DNA of 64,000 nt, taken from Thermoleophilaceae bacterium (lineage in GTDB: Bacteria > Actinomycetota > Thermoleophilia > Solirubrobacterales > Thermoleophilaceae). Below the pieces are notes generated by a model that did not search any database, was not told where the DNA came from, and saw nothing but the letters and a program-made list of their open reading frames with translations. Shown piece after piece: positions 45,524 through 56,890 of the stretch. The position numbers and the translations under genes are program-made. The stretch covers positions 497,925-561,924 of the forward strand of contig JBBDYQ010000025.1 in the NCBI GenBank assembly GCA_040901445.1, in the 5' to 3' direction. Each line of letters starts with the position of its first letter. Position 1 is the first letter of the stretch.

Positions 45524-47311
45524 ATGAACAACCTCCTGGCGCAGATGCCCGTGCCCAATCCTCCCGAAGCCCTGCCGGGCGGGGAGGTGGTCGCATACGT
45601 CCTCGCGGCGCTGGCGATCATCCTGATCTCGGCGCGCATCGTCGGCGGGCTGTTCGTCCGCATCGGCCAGCCGCGCGTGGTCGGGGAGATCATCGCGGGC
45701 ATCCTGATCGGGCCGACGGTGCTCGGAGGCAAGCTCGCCACCCCGGCCGTCACGAGCCTCGAGCGGCAGGCGGTGGACGGCAGCGGGCTGGTCAACGACA
45801 TCTACCCGCTGCAGGCGTTCGCGTTCCTCAACCTGCTCGGCGTCCTCACGCTCGTCTTCTTCATGTTCCTCGTGGGCCTCGAGGTCCAGCAGCGCTTCCT
45901 CAAGGGCAAGGGACCCCAGATCCTCACGGTGGCGCTGGCCGTGACGATCATCCCGGTCGCACTCGGCTTCGTTTTCAACGCGCTGTTCTCCGGCGCCGAG
46001 TACAAGCCGGGTGGGATCTCGGCGGGCACGCAGGGCCTGATCCTCGGAGCCGCGATAGCGGTCACCGCGTTCCCCGTCATGGCGCGCATCCTCCAGGAGA
46101 AGCGCCAGATCGCCACGCCCATGGGCGCGGTCGGCGTGGGGGCGGCGGCAATCGTCACGCCGCTCATGTTCCTCGTGCTCGCGGGCGCCTCCGCGTCGGC
46201 CAAGGGGCAGGGCGCGCCCAACGCGATCGCCACGAAGCTCGCGCTCGCCGTCGGGTTCGCGGCGCTCTGCTTCTTCGTCGTGCGGCCGCTGCTGCAGCGC
46301 TTCGTGCTGAAGGACTTCGACGCGGAGAAGCCGCTGAGCAACCACGTCCTCGCCGTGCTGCTCGCCGGCGCGGTGCTCGGCGGCCTGGCGGGCGACCGCA
46401 TCGGCATCCACTCCCTCAACGGCGCGTTCATCTTCGGCGCCTGCGTGCCGCAGATCGCGGGCCTGGGCAAGGCCGTGATCGACCGGATGAGCGACTTCGT
46501 CGCCGTCTTCCTGATCCCGGTCTTCCTCGCCGTCGCCGGTCTTCAGACGGACTTCCGCGTGCTGACCGTGGAGCTGATCCCGGGCATCCTCGTGTTCCTG
46601 GCGTTCATGATCGCGGGCAAGTGGGCCGTGGGCTACGGCGCTGCGCGCGCCGTCGGGCTCAAGTCGAGCGAGGCCAACACGATCGGCGTGCTCATGAACT
46701 GCCGCGGGCTCATGCTGCTCGTGGTGGCGATCGTGGCCGGGCAGTTCGACGGCATCACGCCCGAGATGCGCGTGATCTTCGCCCTCGGCGCGATCGTCAC
46801 CACCATGATGACCGGCCCGCTCGTGGACCTCTTCCTGCCCAAGGAGGACGTCGAGGCCGAGCGTGACAAGTCGATCCAGGGCTCCATTGCCGGCCTCCCG
46901 GCCATGACCGGTGGGCCGCGCGTGGTGATCGCCCCGTCGGAGGCGGGACACGCCTCGGCGGCGGTGTCGGCAGCCGTGGAGCGCTTCCTCGGCGCCGAGG
47001 GGCCCAAGCCGCAGTTCCTCGTCACCAGCCTCCCCGGCCTGTCGCCGGCGGGAGACTACGTGGGGGCGCTGCTCGAGTCCGGGGAGGAGCGCAGCGTCAC
47101 CCAGACGCTCGGCTGGCTCGGGCCGGCCGCCGCGCGCCTGTCGGCGGCGGGGGCGGATGCCGAGGCGGTCTCGTTCCAGACGCCCGAGCCGGACGCCGAC
47201 CTGGCCAAGCTGGCCACCGACTGGGCGGCCACCGACGCGGTGGTCACCGACGTGGACCAGGCCGGCGCGCTCGAGGAGGCCGGCCTCACGGTGCACCGGG
47301 TCTCCGCCTGA
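45524..47311 (+). CDS. CPA2-family cation:proton antiporter
   Basis: 595 residues. About 12 membrane helices cover residues 20-440, starting VAYVLAALAIILISARIVGG then GQPRVVGEIIAGILIGPTVLG, the signature of KefB/NapA-type Na+(K+)/H+ exchangers. LVFFMFLVGLEVQQRFL is the conserved second-repeat opening, and AFPVMARILQE is the usual unwound-helix region of helix 4/5. The C-terminal 130 residues are hydrophilic (GGPRVVIAPSEAGHASAAVS), resembling a degenerate universal-stress-like regulatory domain. The ion cannot be read from the sequence. Confidence 0.88.
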   Translation: MNNLLAQMPVPNPPEALPGGEVVAYVLAALAIILISARIVGGLFVRIGQPRVVGEIIAGILIGPTVLGGKLATPAVTSLERQAVDGSGLVNDIYPLQAFAFLNLLGVLTLVFFMFLVGLEVQQRFLKGKGPQILTVALAVTIIPVALGFVFNALFSGAEYKPGGISAGTQGLILGAAIAVTAFPVMARILQEKRQIATPMGAVGVGAAAIVTPLMFLVLAGASASAKGQGAPNAIATKLALAVGFAALCFFVVRPLLQRFVLKDFDAEKPLSNHVLAVLLAGAVLGGLAGDRIGIHSLNGAFIFGACVPQIAGLGKAVIDRMSDFVAVFLIPVFLAVAGLQTDFRVLTVELIPGILVFLAFMIAGKWAVGYGAARAVGLKSSEANTIGVLMNCRGLMLLVVAIVAGQFDGITPEMRVIFALGAIVTTMMTGPLVDLFLPKEDVEAERDKSIQGSIAGLPAMTGGPRVVIAPSEAGHASAAVSAAVERFLGAEGPKPQFLVTSLPGLSPAGDYVGALLESGEERSVTQTLGWLGPAAARLSAAGADAEAVSFQTPEPDADLAKLATDWAATDAVVTDVDQAGALEEAGLTVHRVSA

Positions 47312-52499: not shown

Positions 52500-53519
52500 G
52501 TGAGGGCGCTGGTAATCGCCAAGCACGGACCGCCCGAGGTGCTCACGGTCCAGGACCGCCCGGACCCCGTTGCGGGTCCGGGCGAGGTGCGCGTGAGCGT
52601 TCGCGCCGCGGGCATCAACTTCGCGGACCTGATGGCGCGGATCGGCGTGTACCCCGATGCGCCCAAGCCGCCCTGCGTCGTGGGCTACGAGGTGGCCGGC
52701 GAGGTCGAGTCGGTGGGGGAGGGTGTCGAGGGCGTGGCCGTGGGGGACCGTGTGATGGCCGGCACGCGCTTCGGCGGCTACGCCGAGCTGGCGGTGGCCA
52801 AGGCATCGGCCGCGGTGGCGCTGCCGGACGGCTGGAGCTTCGAGGAGGGCGCGTCCTTCCCGGTGAACTACACCACGGCGTATGCCGGGCTGGTGCGCTA
52901 CGGCGCATTGCAGCCGGGCGAGCGGGTGCTCCTGCACGCGGCCGCCGGCGGGGTGGGCATCGCATCCACCCAGATCGCCAAGCTCGTGGGCGCGGAGGTG
53001 TACGGCACCGCCTCGGGAGCGAAGCACGAGGCCATCCGCGGCGTCGGCGTGGACCACCCGGTGGACTACCGCGAGCGCGACTTCGTGGCCGAGGTCCGGC
53101 GGATCGCGGGGGAGGAGCGGCCGCTCGACCTGGTGATGGACGCCATCGGCGGCAGGAGCTGGAAGAAGAGCTTCTCCCTACTGCGCCCGGGCGGGCGCCT
53201 GGTGGCGTTCGGCGCCTCTCAGATAGTGAGCGGGGACCGCCGCGACATCCCGCGGGCGCTGCGCACCCTCGCGCAGACGCCGCGCTTCAACCCGATCAAG
53301 CTCGCCTCGGAGTCGGTGGCGGTCATCGGGCTCAACCTGCTGCGGCTGTGGGACTCCAAGGGCTCCATCGAAGAGTGGATGGAGCCGCTGAGCGGCTGGC
53401 TGGAGGCCGGCGCGCTGCGACCGGTGGTGTCCGACGCCGTGCCGCTCGAGCAGGGCGCGGACGCGCATCGGATCATCCAAGAGCGCCGCAACGTGGGCAA
53501 GGTCGTGCTCACGCTGTAG
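52500..53519 (+). CDS. NADPH:quinone reductase-like MDR oxidoreductase
   Basis: 339 residues, GTG start. It belongs to the zinc-free medium-chain dehydrogenase/reductase group (quinone reductase, QOR-like): N-terminal GroES-like domain with AAGINFADLMARIGVYP, GYEVAGEVESVGEGV and GDRVMAGTRFGGYAE; nucleotide loop LLHAAAGGVGIASTQIAKL; and the late LVMDAIGGRSWKKSF. The Cys/His zinc ligands of alcohol dehydrogenases are absent. Its stop codon forms the start of the leucine leader promoter box. Confidence 0.9.
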   Translation: MRALVIAKHGPPEVLTVQDRPDPVAGPGEVRVSVRAAGINFADLMARIGVYPDAPKPPCVVGYEVAGEVESVGEGVEGVAVGDRVMAGTRFGGYAELAVAKASAAVALPDGWSFEEGASFPVNYTTAYAGLVRYGALQPGERVLLHAAAGGVGIASTQIAKLVGAEVYGTASGAKHEAIRGVGVDHPVDYRERDFVAEVRRIAGEERPLDLVMDAIGGRSWKKSFSLLRPGGRLVAFGASQIVSGDRRDIPRALRTLAQTPRFNPIKLASESVAVIGLNLLRLWDSKGSIEEWMEPLSGWLEAGALRPVVSDAVPLEQGADAHRIIQERRNVGKVVLTL

Positions 53520-53522
53520 GCT
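53517..53522 (+). promoter_or_regulatory. Possible -10 box TAGGCT, leaderless promoter of the leu leader
   Basis: TAGGCT ends ten bases before the leader-peptide ATG at 53533. Its first three bases are the stop codon of the preceding gene, so coincidence must be weighed. Confidence 0.4.
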
Positions 53523-53532
53523 TGGACGGCCG

Positions 53533-53589
53533 ATGTCGTTCCTGGTGGACCTTCGACTTCTCCTTCTCCTCCCCCTCCGGGGGGAGTAA
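53533..53589 (+). CDS. leuL: Leucine leader peptide (18 residues)
   Basis: ATG at 53533 and TAA at 53587 encode MSFLVDLRLLLLLPLRGE: eight leucines in 18 residues, five of them consecutive (codons 9-13, CTT CTC CTT CTC CTC). It ends 65 bases before leuA on the same strand. A leucine-rich leader before leuA is the known signature of ribosome-mediated leucine attenuation, reported for actinobacterial leuA. Slow translation of the Leu run when Leu-tRNA is scarce would change the fold of the RNA that follows. It has no evident ribosome site and may be leaderless. Confidence 0.85.
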   Translation: MSFLVDLRLLLLLPLRGE

Positions 53590-53653
53590 CGCGCGGGCGG
53601 CCGCAGGTGCCGCGAACCGAAGGAGAACTCGAGGCAGGACCCGAAAGGAACGA
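53536..53653 (+). promoter_or_regulatory. Leucine attenuator RNA: nested pairings masking the leuA ribosome site
   Basis: Four nested helices are visible. P1: 53536-53542 (TCGTTCC) with 53647-53653 (GGAACGA), which covers part of the leuA ribosome site AAAGGA (53644-53649). P2: 53558-53566 (TTCTCCTTC, inside the Leu codons) with 53619-53627 (GAAGGAGAA). P3: 53569-53575 with 53580-53586, seven pairs and a TCCG loop. P4: 53597-53601 with 53609-53613. A ribosome stalled on the Leu codons would block P1 and P2 and free the leuA site. No U-tract follows, so control of translation is more likely than transcription termination. Confidence 0.65.
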
Positions 53654-53654
53654 G

Positions 53655-55238
53655 ATGGATCGCAGCGAGCCCAACCGAGTACGAATCTTCGACACGACGC
53701 TGCGCGACGGGGAGCAGTCGCCCGGCATCTCGCTCAACAAGCAGGAGAAGCTGGAGATCGCACACCAGCTCGCGCGGCTCGGGGTCGACGTGATCGAGGC
53801 CGGCTTTCCGATCACCTCGCCCGGCGACTTCGAGTCGGTGCAGGCGATCGCCCGCCAGGTGGAGGGCCCGGTCATCTGCGGGCTTGCCCGCACCCACACC
53901 CAGGACATCGACGCTGCGTGGAACGCGATCAAGGACGCCGAGCGCAAGCGCATCCACACGTTCATCGCGACGAGTGACATCCACATCGAGCGCAAGCTCC
54001 AGACCACGCGCGAGGACGTGAAGGGCCAGGCCCGCGCCGCGGTTGCGCACGCGCGTCAGCACACCGACGACGTGGAGTTCTCGCCCGAGGACGGCTCGCG
54101 CTCGGATGTCGAGTTCATGGCTGAGGTCATCCAGATCGCCATCGACGAGGGCGCCACCACCATCAACGTGCCCGACACCGTGGGCTACACGATGCCCGGG
54201 GAGTACGCCGCCATGTTCGCGCGCCTGTACGAGCTCGTGCCGGCCCTGCGCGACGTCGTCGTCTCGGTGCACTGCCACAACGACCTCGGGCTGGCCGTGG
54301 CCAACTCCCTCGCGGGAGTCGGCGCCGGCTGCCGCCAGGTGGAATGCGCGATCAACGGCATCGGCGAGCGCGCGGGCAACGCGTCGCTGGAGGAGATCGT
54401 GATGCTCATGCACACGCGCGAGTCCTCGCTCGGGCTGTGGACGGGCATCGACACCCGCGAGATCGCCCGCAGCAGCCGGCTCGTGTCCCGCCTCACCGGC
54501 TATCCGGTCCAGCCCAACAAGGCCATCGTCGGGCGCAACGCATTCGCCCACGAGGCCGGCATCCACCAGGACGGCGTGCTGAAGGAGCGCACGACGTACG
54601 AGATCATGGACGCCACCACCATCGGGCTGGAGACCAACTCGATCGTGCTCGGCAAGCACTCCGGCCGGCACGCGCTGCGCAAGGCCCTGGAGGAGCTGGG
54701 CCTGCAGGTGGAGGGGGCCGCGCTCAACACCGCCTTCAAGCGCTTCAAGGAGATCGCGGACAAGAAGAAGAAGGTCACCGCGCTCGACCTGGAGGCCATC
54801 GTCTCGGACGAGATGCGCGAGGCCGCCACCGACGCGTACGAGATCGTGAGCTTCGACGTGGAGGCCTCCTCGGCGCGCTCCCCGCTGGCCAAGGTGGTCG
54901 TGCGGATGCCGGACGGGGAGGTGCGCGAGGGCAGCTTCACCGGCGACGGCCCGGTCGATGCCTTCTTCTCGGCCATCAACGCCGCCATCGGGCGCGAGGC
55001 ACGGCTCAAGGAGTTCCACGTGAGCGCGGTGACCGGCGGCCGGGACGCCCTCGGCGAGACCACCGTGCTGCTCGAGCTCGACGGCCGGCTGGCGTCCGGC
55101 CAGGGCGTGTCCACCGACATCCTCGAGGCGGCGGGCAAGGCGTACCTGCGTGCGTTCAACAACGTGCTGCGCGACTCGGCCGTGGCCGAGGCCGAGCATC
55201 ACCTCGAGCGCGAGGCGCAGTCCACGCCAACGCCGTAG
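53655..55238 (+). CDS. leuA: 2-Isopropylmalate synthase
   Basis: 527 residues from the ATG at 53655 ([20 protein letters not shown]), with AAAGGA six bases upstream; a start 48 bases earlier would swallow the attenuator. It condenses acetyl-CoA with 2-ketoisovalerate, committing to leucine. Metal and substrate residues: [13 protein letters not shown], the [16 protein letters not shown] motif, and [14 protein letters not shown]. The linker [20 protein letters not shown] and the C-terminal regulatory domain (about 390-520) suggest leucine feedback. It is followed with a one-base overlap (TAGTG) by the dehydrogenase gene. Confidence 0.96.
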
Positions 55239-56218
55239 TGGCGGAGCCGTTCACCTGGGTCGACGGCGAGCGGGTCATCCGCTTCGGCCGCGGCTCTGTG
55301 GCTGAGGCCACGACGCTGCTCGCCGAGCACGGTTTCGGGGGGTTCGCGCTGCTCACCACCGAGCGCGCCCGGGCTTCGGCGCCGGAGGTCGTGGCGGCCG
55401 CGGCGGTGGAGCTGCTCGTGCCGTCCGGCGAGGTGCCCGACGCCGCCGCGGCAGTGCGCGCCGGCGTGGGCGGCCGGCCGCTGGTGGCGCTCGGCGGCGG
55501 GCGGGTGATCGACGCCGCCAAGGGGATCGCGGGCGCGGACGGCCTGTCCTGCGCGGCCATCCCCACCACGCTGTCGGGCGCGGAGATCACCCGGATCCAC
55601 CGGATGCCGGCGGGCGCGGACGAGTTCACGCTGGTGCGGCCGCGGCTGGTCGTGGCGGACCCCGCGCTCATGGCCTCGCAGCCGCTGCCGGCGCTGGCCG
55701 CCAGCGCGATGAACGCCCTCGCTCACGCCCTGGAGGCGCTGTATGTGCCGCTGCGAAACCCTGTGGCCGATATTGCGGCGCTGGAGGCCGCCGAGCGCAT
55801 CGGGCGCGGATTGGGCGCGGACCAGCCCGATCGCGACTCGCTCGCCCTGGGCTCGCTCCTCGGGGCCTACGCGCTCGGCGCCACGGGCTACGCCGTGCAC
55901 CACGTGGTCTGCCAGACACTCGTGCGCGTTGCGGGCACGCCCCATGCGGAGACCAACGCGGTGATGCTGCCGCACACGCTCGCGCTGATGGAGAAGCGCG
56001 TGCCGTCGGTGGTTGCGCGCTTCCGGGCGCGCCTCGGCGCCGACCTGGGCGACCTCGCGGCGCGCTCCGGCGGACCGCGCACACTGGCCGACCTCGGTGT
56101 GGGGGAAGAGCACGTAGGGGCGGTGGTCGAGGGCGCGCTGGCACGCCCGCAGCTGGCCAACACCCCCGACCCCCCGGGCCGCGACGAGCTGCTGGCCTAC
56201 GTCCGCGCCGCCCTCTAG
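55238..56218 (+). CDS. Iron-containing alcohol dehydrogenase family protein (maleylacetate reductase-like)
   Basis: 326 residues, GTG start overlapping the leuA stop by one base. Nucleotide region VALGGGRVIDAAKGIA and AIPTTLSGAEIT; metal-binding residues include the Asp/His positions in [36 protein letters not shown] and NAVMLPHTLALM. It most resembles maleylacetate reductases of this family. No ring-cleavage genes are near. The tight coupling to leuA suggests a substrate near the leucine pathway, but nothing in the sequence proves it. Confidence 0.82.
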   Translation: MAEPFTWVDGERVIRFGRGSVAEATTLLAEHGFGGFALLTTERARASAPEVVAAAAVELLVPSGEVPDAAAAVRAGVGGRPLVALGGGRVIDAAKGIAGADGLSCAAIPTTLSGAEITRIHRMPAGADEFTLVRPRLVVADPALMASQPLPALAASAMNALAHALEALYVPLRNPVADIAALEAAERIGRGLGADQPDRDSLALGSLLGAYALGATGYAVHHVVCQTLVRVAGTPHAETNAVMLPHTLALMEKRVPSVVARFRARLGADLGDLAARSGGPRTLADLGVGEEHVGAVVEGALARPQLANTPDPPGRDELLAYVRAAL

Positions 56219-56273
56219 CTATAGGGCATAAGGAGCGACGTTCGATGCAAAAGGGAGCTCCGGTGGCAGACAA

Positions 56274-56293
56274 TCGTACGTGATAACGTACGA
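56274..56293. promoter_or_regulatory. Operator-like palindrome before the XRE regulator
   Basis: TCGTACGT-GATA-ACGTACGA, eight perfect base pairs, lies seven bases before the regulator's ATG and overlaps its -10 box. This is the expected place for self-repression. Confidence 0.6.
56284..56289 (+). promoter_or_regulatory. -10 box TAACGT of the XRE regulator
   Basis: TAACGT ends ten bases before the ATG at 56300, inside the palindrome 56274-56293. Confidence 0.45.
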
Positions 56294-56299
56294 CCAGCC

Positions 56300-56890
56300 A
56301 TGGCAACCGCAGCGCCTCCCGAGCACGCCCACGTCGGCCCGCGCGTCCGCGCCCTGCGCGAGGCCATGGACCTCTCGCTGCGCGACCTGGCCGAGCGCTC
56401 CGGCGTCTCGGCGCCCATGCTGTCGCAGGTGGAGAGGGGGGAGACCAGCCCCACGCTCGCCATCGCGGCCCGCATCGCGGCGGGCCTCGAGCTGTCGCTG
56501 TCCCAGTTGCTGCGCCTCGACGAGGGCGACGGCATCACGGTCGTCCGCGCCGCGGGCCGCCTGAGCGGCGGCAACGCCCGGCGCGGCCACCGCTACGAGG
56601 TGGTCACCCCGCCGATCCCCGGTCAGCGCGCGGAGGTGTCCGAGCACACGCTCGCGCCGGGCGCCGCCACCGGCGGGCCCGGTGACCCGCCCATGCACGA
56701 GCCCGGCGCGCGCGAGACCGCACTCGTGACTGCCGGCACCGTCCGCCTGGTGTGCGCGGGCGAGCCCCACGACCTGCAGGAGGGCGACAGCGTCACGTTC
56801 GACGCCGACCTTCCCCACCACTTCGAGAACCCCGGCGGCGGTCAGGCGCGCTTCCTGTCCGTCGTAGCCGCCGGCCTGAGGAGGAGCTGA
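56300..56890 (+). CDS. XRE-family regulator with C-terminal cupin domain
   Basis: 196 residues. The helix-turn-helix domain (about 12-67) reads [20 protein letters not shown] and [17 protein letters not shown], the standard XRE/SinR pattern. A cupin (about 100-190) with [11 protein letters not shown] and [11 protein letters not shown] should bind a small effector or metal. Such regulators control metabolism of amino acids, polyamines or sugars. It precedes leuC by two bases in the same transcript and has a palindrome over its own promoter, so it probably controls itself and leuCD-leuB downstream. The effector could be a leucine intermediate (inference). Confidence 0.88.

What the first reader, a model, noticed from the sequence alone, without database searches (positions are those of the whole stretch)
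53533..53654. Leucine leader peptide with a nested translational attenuator before leuA
An 18-codon frame (8 Leu, five in a row) lies before leuA. Its RNA shows four nested helices; one pairs the Leu-codon run with 53619-53627 and another pairs the second to fourth codons with the leuA ribosome site (53647-53653). Ribosome stalling on the Leu run would expose the leuA site. There is no U-tract, so this differs from the classical leu terminator and looks like translation control.
Basis: partly seen in the sequence, partly recalled or inferred. Interest (0 to 1): 0.75.

Follow-up and report, generated by a model that had tools for sequence, protein, structure and literature searches.

The report
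Leucine-sensing leader before leuA
A tiny gene rich in leucine codons sits just before the leucine-biosynthesis gene leuA, and its RNA can fold over the leuA start signal; the arrangement is conserved across an order of actinobacteria and is probably a leucine-controlled switch, a new variant of a known type.

Summary
The 18-codon ORF (53533-53589, MSFLVDLRLLLLLPLRGE*), P1 and P2 are exact, and the RNA folds better than all 200 shuffles (z -3.55). The element is real: a Leu-run leader plus two core hairpins is found in 139 of 151 Solirubrobacterales genomes. Of 38 Thermoleophilia hits with readable downstream sequence, 37 lie directly before leuA (either of two leuA types); the other precedes leuS.

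A TANNNT (-10-like) box lies just upstream of the leader start in 46 of 47 relatives, so the leader is probably (nearly) leaderless. And topology differs between families. In the window's family and a sister family the leader folds back in nested helices onto the leuA ribosome site; own arms pair better than swapped arms. In a third family the Leu run pairs with the leuA Shine-Dalgarno while the leader start pairs with a different segment, a crossing (pseudoknot-like) layout.

There is no U-tract terminator. Leucine-responsive translational attenuation is the best reading, but no expression data exist and my stall simulation did not beat its control. The kind is known (LEU element, PMC1262725; Streptomyces leuL1, PMC8079986). 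This form matches no Rfam family, and I found no report of it.

The parts
53517..53522 (+). -10-like promoter hexamer TAGGCT (TANNNT) 16 nt before the leader start; overlaps the stop codon of the upstream zinc-dehydrogenase gene. Implies a (nearly) leaderless leader mRNA
   Evidence: TANNNT at -12 to -22 in 46 of 47 relatives, in nearly all as the only such box; start site itself inferred
53533..53589 (+). Leader peptide ORF MSFLVDLRLLLLLPLRGE*
   Evidence: conserved in family and order with in-frame length changes and three different stop codons
53557..53571 (+). Leu codon run (codons 9-13: CTT CTC CTT CTC CTC)
   Evidence: CTT is 32% of leader Leu codons against 3% in window genes
53536..53542 (+). 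P1 5' arm (codons 2 to 4)
   Evidence: covariation
53647..53653 (+). P1 3' arm, overlapping the leuA ribosome-binding site
   Evidence: covariation
53551..53556 (+). Middle helix 5' arm (codons 7-8)
   Evidence: MFE; genus-level swap test p < 5e-5
53629..53634 (+). Middle helix 3' arm
   Evidence: MFE; genus-level swap test p < 5e-5
53558..53566 (+). P2 5' arm (within the Leu run)
   Evidence: n = 50 p < 5e-5, sister family alone p < 5e-5
53619..53627 (+). P2 3' arm (GAAGGAGAA)
53569..53586 (+). P3 hairpin CTCCCCC-TCCG-GGGGGAG over the end of the leader ORF; kept although the peptide end differs among relatives (PLRGE, PSGS, PR)
53597..53613 (+). P4 hairpin GCGGC/GCCGC inside a very conserved core
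   Evidence: RNAalifold, alignment; swapped to GGCCGC/GCGGCC-type stems in L008 and L010
53644..53649 (+). leuA Shine-Dalgarno (AAAGGA)
   Evidence: sequence
53655..55238 (+). leuA, 2-isopropylmalate synthase (527 aa)
   Evidence: Pfam HMGL-like, HCS_D2, LeuA_dimer

Best explanation
A leucine-responsive translational attenuator. Transcription starts a few bases before the leader ATG, so ribosomes load on a nearly leaderless 18-codon ORF. With enough charged tRNA-Leu the ribosome runs to the stop codon and leaves; the leader RNA then folds back (P2, middle helix, P1) and P1 covers the leuA ribosome-binding site. When charged tRNA-Leu is short the ribosome pauses on the Leu run, holds the 5' arms of P2 and the middle helix open, P1 loses its support and leuA is translated. 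Shown: the leader, its conservation, the promoter-like box, the covarying helices, the place before leuA or leuS, absence of a U-tract. Inferred: the start of transcription, translation of the leader, the pause and the direction of the response.
For: Leu run conserved before leuA in the family and order; model hits in 139 of 151 order genomes, usually one strong hit each; 37 of 38 readable Thermoleophilia hits directly precede leuA of type 1 or type 2 and one precedes leuS followed by leuA type 2. Own arms pair better than swapped arms: P1, P2 and middle helix. Leader ORF varies by whole codons, with ATG/GTG starts and TAA/TAG/TGA stops. TANNNT box at the leader start in 46 of 47. No + strand terminator. 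A sister family sequesters the leuA Shine-Dalgarno directly with the Leu run, with covariation. Precedent: leaderless Leu leader without terminator before leuA in Streptomyces lividans (PMC8079986); leaderless poly-Cys ORFs that attenuate downstream genes in mycobacteria (reported in PMC9031893).
Against: No expression data. The predicted drop in the cost of opening the leuA site when a ribosome is placed on the Leu run was equally large after the intercistronic segment was shuffled with the ribosome site kept, so it is no evidence for the nested design. P1 can in principle re-form with the stalled ribosome in its loop. In S. coelicolor, mutations of the leuA leader gave effects not consistent with classical attenuation (Craster 1999, as described in PMC1262725).
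Confidence: 0.72

Rival explanations
1. Transcriptional control: the same leader decides between Rho-dependent early termination (no ribosome cover) and read-through, and the RNA helices serve mainly to hide or expose a Rho loading site.
For: No intrinsic terminator, as in the mycobacterial cys leaders for which Rho was proposed (PMC1262725).
Against: The covarying helices end on the leuA ribosome site (P1) in two families and on the Shine-Dalgarno in a third, which Rho control alone would not need.
Confidence: 0.12
2. A protein-binding or ligand-binding RNA (as proposed for the LEU element), with the short ORF incidental.
For: The core between the leader stop and P4 is more conserved in sequence than plain hairpins need. 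The authors of the LEU element favoured a regulatory protein.
Against: The Leu run and reading frame are conserved with whole-codon changes and different stop codons, and the element sits only before leuA or leuS among the hits examined.
Confidence: 0.1
3. Ordinary structured leader without regulation: the leader only raises leuA translation by ribosome re-initiation.
For: Leader genes can raise downstream translation by re-initiation (PMC4833913, listed); the gap from leader stop to leuA is short (65 nt here).
Against: Selection for a Leu run specifically, for CTT codons that are rare in nearby genes (32% against 3%), and for pairing with the leuA site.
Confidence: 0.06

Closest known systems
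LEU element of Actinobacteria (Seliverstov et al. 2005, PMC1262725)
   Same: Leader peptide with a Leu run directly before leuA; RNA that can occlude the leuA Shine-Dalgarno; no obvious terminator.
   Different: Described as a pseudoknot with a base stem made by the Leu run and the Shine-Dalgarno. In the window's family the helices are nested, the Leu run pairs with a segment 28-36 nt before the leuA start and the Shine-Dalgarno is covered by codons 2-4. Sequence of the core differs, and model R1 gives no convincing hit at the Mycobacterium or Streptomyces leuA leaders. Those leaders sit before leuA type 2; here usually type 1. A third Solirubrobacterales family does have a crossing layout.
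Streptomyces leuL1 (PMC8079986)
   Same: Leaderless Leu-rich leader (MRFGLLLLSCRGEGL) before leuA without a typical terminator.
   Different: Different hairpins; leuA type 2; mechanism also unproven.
Enterobacterial leu leader (Rfam Leu_leader)
   Same: Leu-run leader peptide controlling leucine genes (from general knowledge).
   Different: Classical transcription terminator with U-tract; here absent and no Rfam match.
Mycobacterial poly-Cys leaderless ORFs (Canestrari et al. 2020, as reported in PMC9031893)
   Same: Leaderless short ORF with a run of the regulated amino acid, attenuating downstream genes.
   Different: Cysteine, other genes; the 2020 paper itself was not read here.

Membership tests
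[quoted passage not shown]
LEU element (Actinobacteria) | Base stem between the Leu codon run and the leuA Shine-Dalgarno | tested here: not met
   In the window the Leu run pairs with 53619-53627, not with the Shine-Dalgarno; support for Leu run x Shine-Dalgarno in the two nested families is weak (p 0.04), strong only in the third family (p 0.0004 and 0.006)
LEU element (Actinobacteria) | Pseudoknot | tested here: not met
   Crossing helix not supported in the window's family (p 0.66) nor in the two nested families together (p 0.72); supported in the third family (p 0.0001)
LEU element (Actinobacteria) | Sequence similarity to known LEU elements | tested here: not met
   Model R1 gives no convincing match at Mycobacterium or Streptomyces leuA leaders; sequences differ by eye
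Classical amino-acid attenuator (Leu_leader type) | Intrinsic terminator with U-tract between leader and structural gene | tested here: not met
Translational attenuator driven by a leader peptide | Leader RNA can pair with the ribosome-binding site of the downstream gene | tested here: met
   P1 and middle helix with covariation
Translational attenuator driven by a leader peptide | Ribosome stalling on the leader raises downstream translation | not testable with these tools
   needs experiments; in-silico stall test did not discriminate

The most novel reading that the evidence does not exclude
A class-wide leucine attenuator of Thermoleophilia, distinct from described LEU elements, in which the first codons of a leaderless leader ORF are themselves the blocker of the leuA ribosome site, so each ribosome that starts on the leader also opens leuA; the same cassette has switched between a nested and a crossing RNA topology in sister families while keeping its parts, and has been carried over to leuA type 2 and leuS.
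Probability: 0.5. Interest if true: 0.62.

Novelty: new variant of a known kind. Interest (0 to 1): 0.5.

Why it matters
It extends amino-acid attenuation to a deep-branching actinobacterial class in which I found no report of it, gives an attenuator without a terminator whose helices are supported by covariation, and offers a natural comparison (nested against crossing layout, leuA type 1 against type 2 against leuS) for how such switches evolve. It also makes the long-unclear leuA control in Actinobacteria testable in a simpler version.

Tried and rejected
1) Stall simulation: opening the leuA site costs less with a ribosome on the Leu run than at the stop codon in 33 of 43 sequences, but shuffled intercistronic segments with the ribosome site kept show the same or more. 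Rejected as evidence. 2) RNAalifold on the MAFFT alignment finds only P3 and P4, because the 3' arms differ in length; replaced by alignment-free arm-swap tests. 3) The pooled 'mid' row has impossible energies (empty segments) and is not used; the middle-helix result is. 4) Crossing helix in the window's family: not supported. 5) First scans of minus-strand loci missed leaders because those loci were not oriented; corrected. 6) A similar leader before the gene at 45524 was looked for: that gene does not look like ilvB, and no leader was found. 7) Weak model hits outside Thermoleophilia: the best one (G071, E 2.8e-6) is not before leuA (L228); treated as chance. 8) Rfam: no match.

Full report
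Observation. The window holds an 18-codon ORF at 53533-53589 (MSFLVDLRLLLLLPLRGE*), 65 nt before the leuA ATG at 53655. P1 and P2 are exactly complementary as stated. Folding of 53533-53657 gives -63 kcal/mol, below all 200 dinucleotide shuffles (z -3.55), with P1, a middle helix (53551-53556/53629-53634), P2, a local hairpin P3 and a smaller hairpin in the P4 region. No + strand terminator-like site and no relevant Rfam match. The downstream protein is 2-isopropylmalate synthase by Pfam domains.

Who carries it. leuA was searched in 60 relatives and the upstream regions read (minus-strand loci had to be turned). Nearly all have a short ORF with a Leu run, consensus close to M-S-F-x-L-D-L-R-L-L-L-L-P-L-R-G-E in the window's family, followed by P3 and P4. 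A covariance model of leader plus P3 and P4 (R1; built from 42 of these sequences) finds 139 of 151 genomes of the order, usually one strong hit each, weaker hits in the class and nothing convincing outside it. Forty further hits were fetched. Of 38 Thermoleophilia hits with readable downstream sequence, 37 lie directly before leuA: mostly type 1 as in the window, twice type 2 (L192, L206); one (L190) lies before leuS, followed by leuA type 2. One genome (G261) has one element before each type.

Is it translated? The ORF varies by whole codons in the alignment of three families; starts are ATG or GTG and stops TAA, TAG or TGA. P3 is kept although the peptide ends differently (PLRGE*, PSGS*, PR*), so P3 is selected as RNA, not only through the peptide. 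CTT is 32% of Leu codons in leaders against 3% in window genes; this fits pairing with purine-rich segments, rare-codon sensing, or both.

Promoter. In 46 of 47 relatives a TANNNT hexamer begins 12-22 nt before the leader start; in the window it is TAGGCT, 53517-53522, overlapping the stop codon of the upstream dehydrogenase gene. Transcription should start within a few bases of the leader ATG (inferred), so the leader is leaderless or nearly so, as measured for leuL1 of Streptomyces lividans (PMC8079986).

Structure across relatives. MAFFT cannot align the 3' arms (indels), so I used arm swapping: the duplex energy of each 5' segment with its own 3' segment against those of other members of the same family. 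In the window's family (n = 24) the segment before the Leu run prefers its own downstream segment (-21.8 against -18.8, permutation p < 1e-4); with one genome per genus (n = 15) p = 0.0012, and codons 5-8 against the middle segment p < 5e-5. In the sister family f2 (n = 26) the Leu run prefers its own post-P4 segment (p < 5e-5) and P1 gives p = 0.024. Pooling the two families with swaps within family (n = 50): P1 p < 5e-5 in the strict window and 0.005 in the wider one, P2 p < 5e-5, crossing helix p = 0.72. The first P1 pair is U-A in 17, C-G in 7, G-C in 5. In family f3 (n = 19) the result is different: leader start against the post-P4 segment p = 0.0001, Leu run against the leuA Shine-Dalgarno p = 0.006, P1-like pairing p = 0.82. 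These two f3 helices cross, so they form a pseudoknot or exclude one another. These permutation values do not fully account for relatedness.

Mechanism. Best reading: leucine-responsive translational attenuation as set out in Best explanation. The step from conserved anatomy to response is inferred. A simulation placing a ribosome on the Leu run lowered the cost of opening the leuA site in 33 of 43 sequences, but the control with the intercistronic segment shuffled and the ribosome site kept did the same, so I do not use it as evidence.

Known or new. The LEU element (PMC1262725) is the nearest described system: Leu leader, leuA, Shine-Dalgarno occlusion, no clear terminator. Two of its defining features (base stem of Leu run with the Shine-Dalgarno; pseudoknot) were tested and not met in the window's family, although the sister family f3 comes close. 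The Mycobacterium and Streptomyces leaders read here differ in sequence and precede leuA type 2. I therefore call it a new variant of a known kind, not a member of the LEU element as described. Literature searches found no report for this class, within an open-access library only.

Unexplained. The stretch between the leader stop and P4 is near-invariant over three families, including bases not in any supported pair.

Noticed in passing
L190 (G031:C85:22800-26100, minus strand): The same element stands before leuS, with leuA type 2 behind it, in a Solirubrobacterales genome; independent support for a leucine signal.
   Followed up: partly
L191 (G238:C50:4100-8000): Two tandem copies of the element about 1.1 kb apart; the first is followed by what looks like a duplicated and broken start of leuA, the second by intact leuA.
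   Followed up: partly
L192 and L193 (G261): One genome carries one element before leuA type 1 and another before leuA type 2.
   Followed up: yes
53587-53613: Core between leader stop and P4 (GCGYGUGGCGGCCGC..GCCGC) is more conserved than simple hairpins need; possible tertiary or binding site.
   Followed up: no
L172, L174, L175, L177: Another actinobacterial family (f29) has a Leu leader before leuA type 2 that is followed by a hairpin and a T-run, like a classical attenuator; seen by eye only.
   Followed up: no
window 55238-56890: Between leuA and leuC lie an iron-alcohol-dehydrogenase-like gene and an HTH-cupin regulator gene.
   Followed up: no
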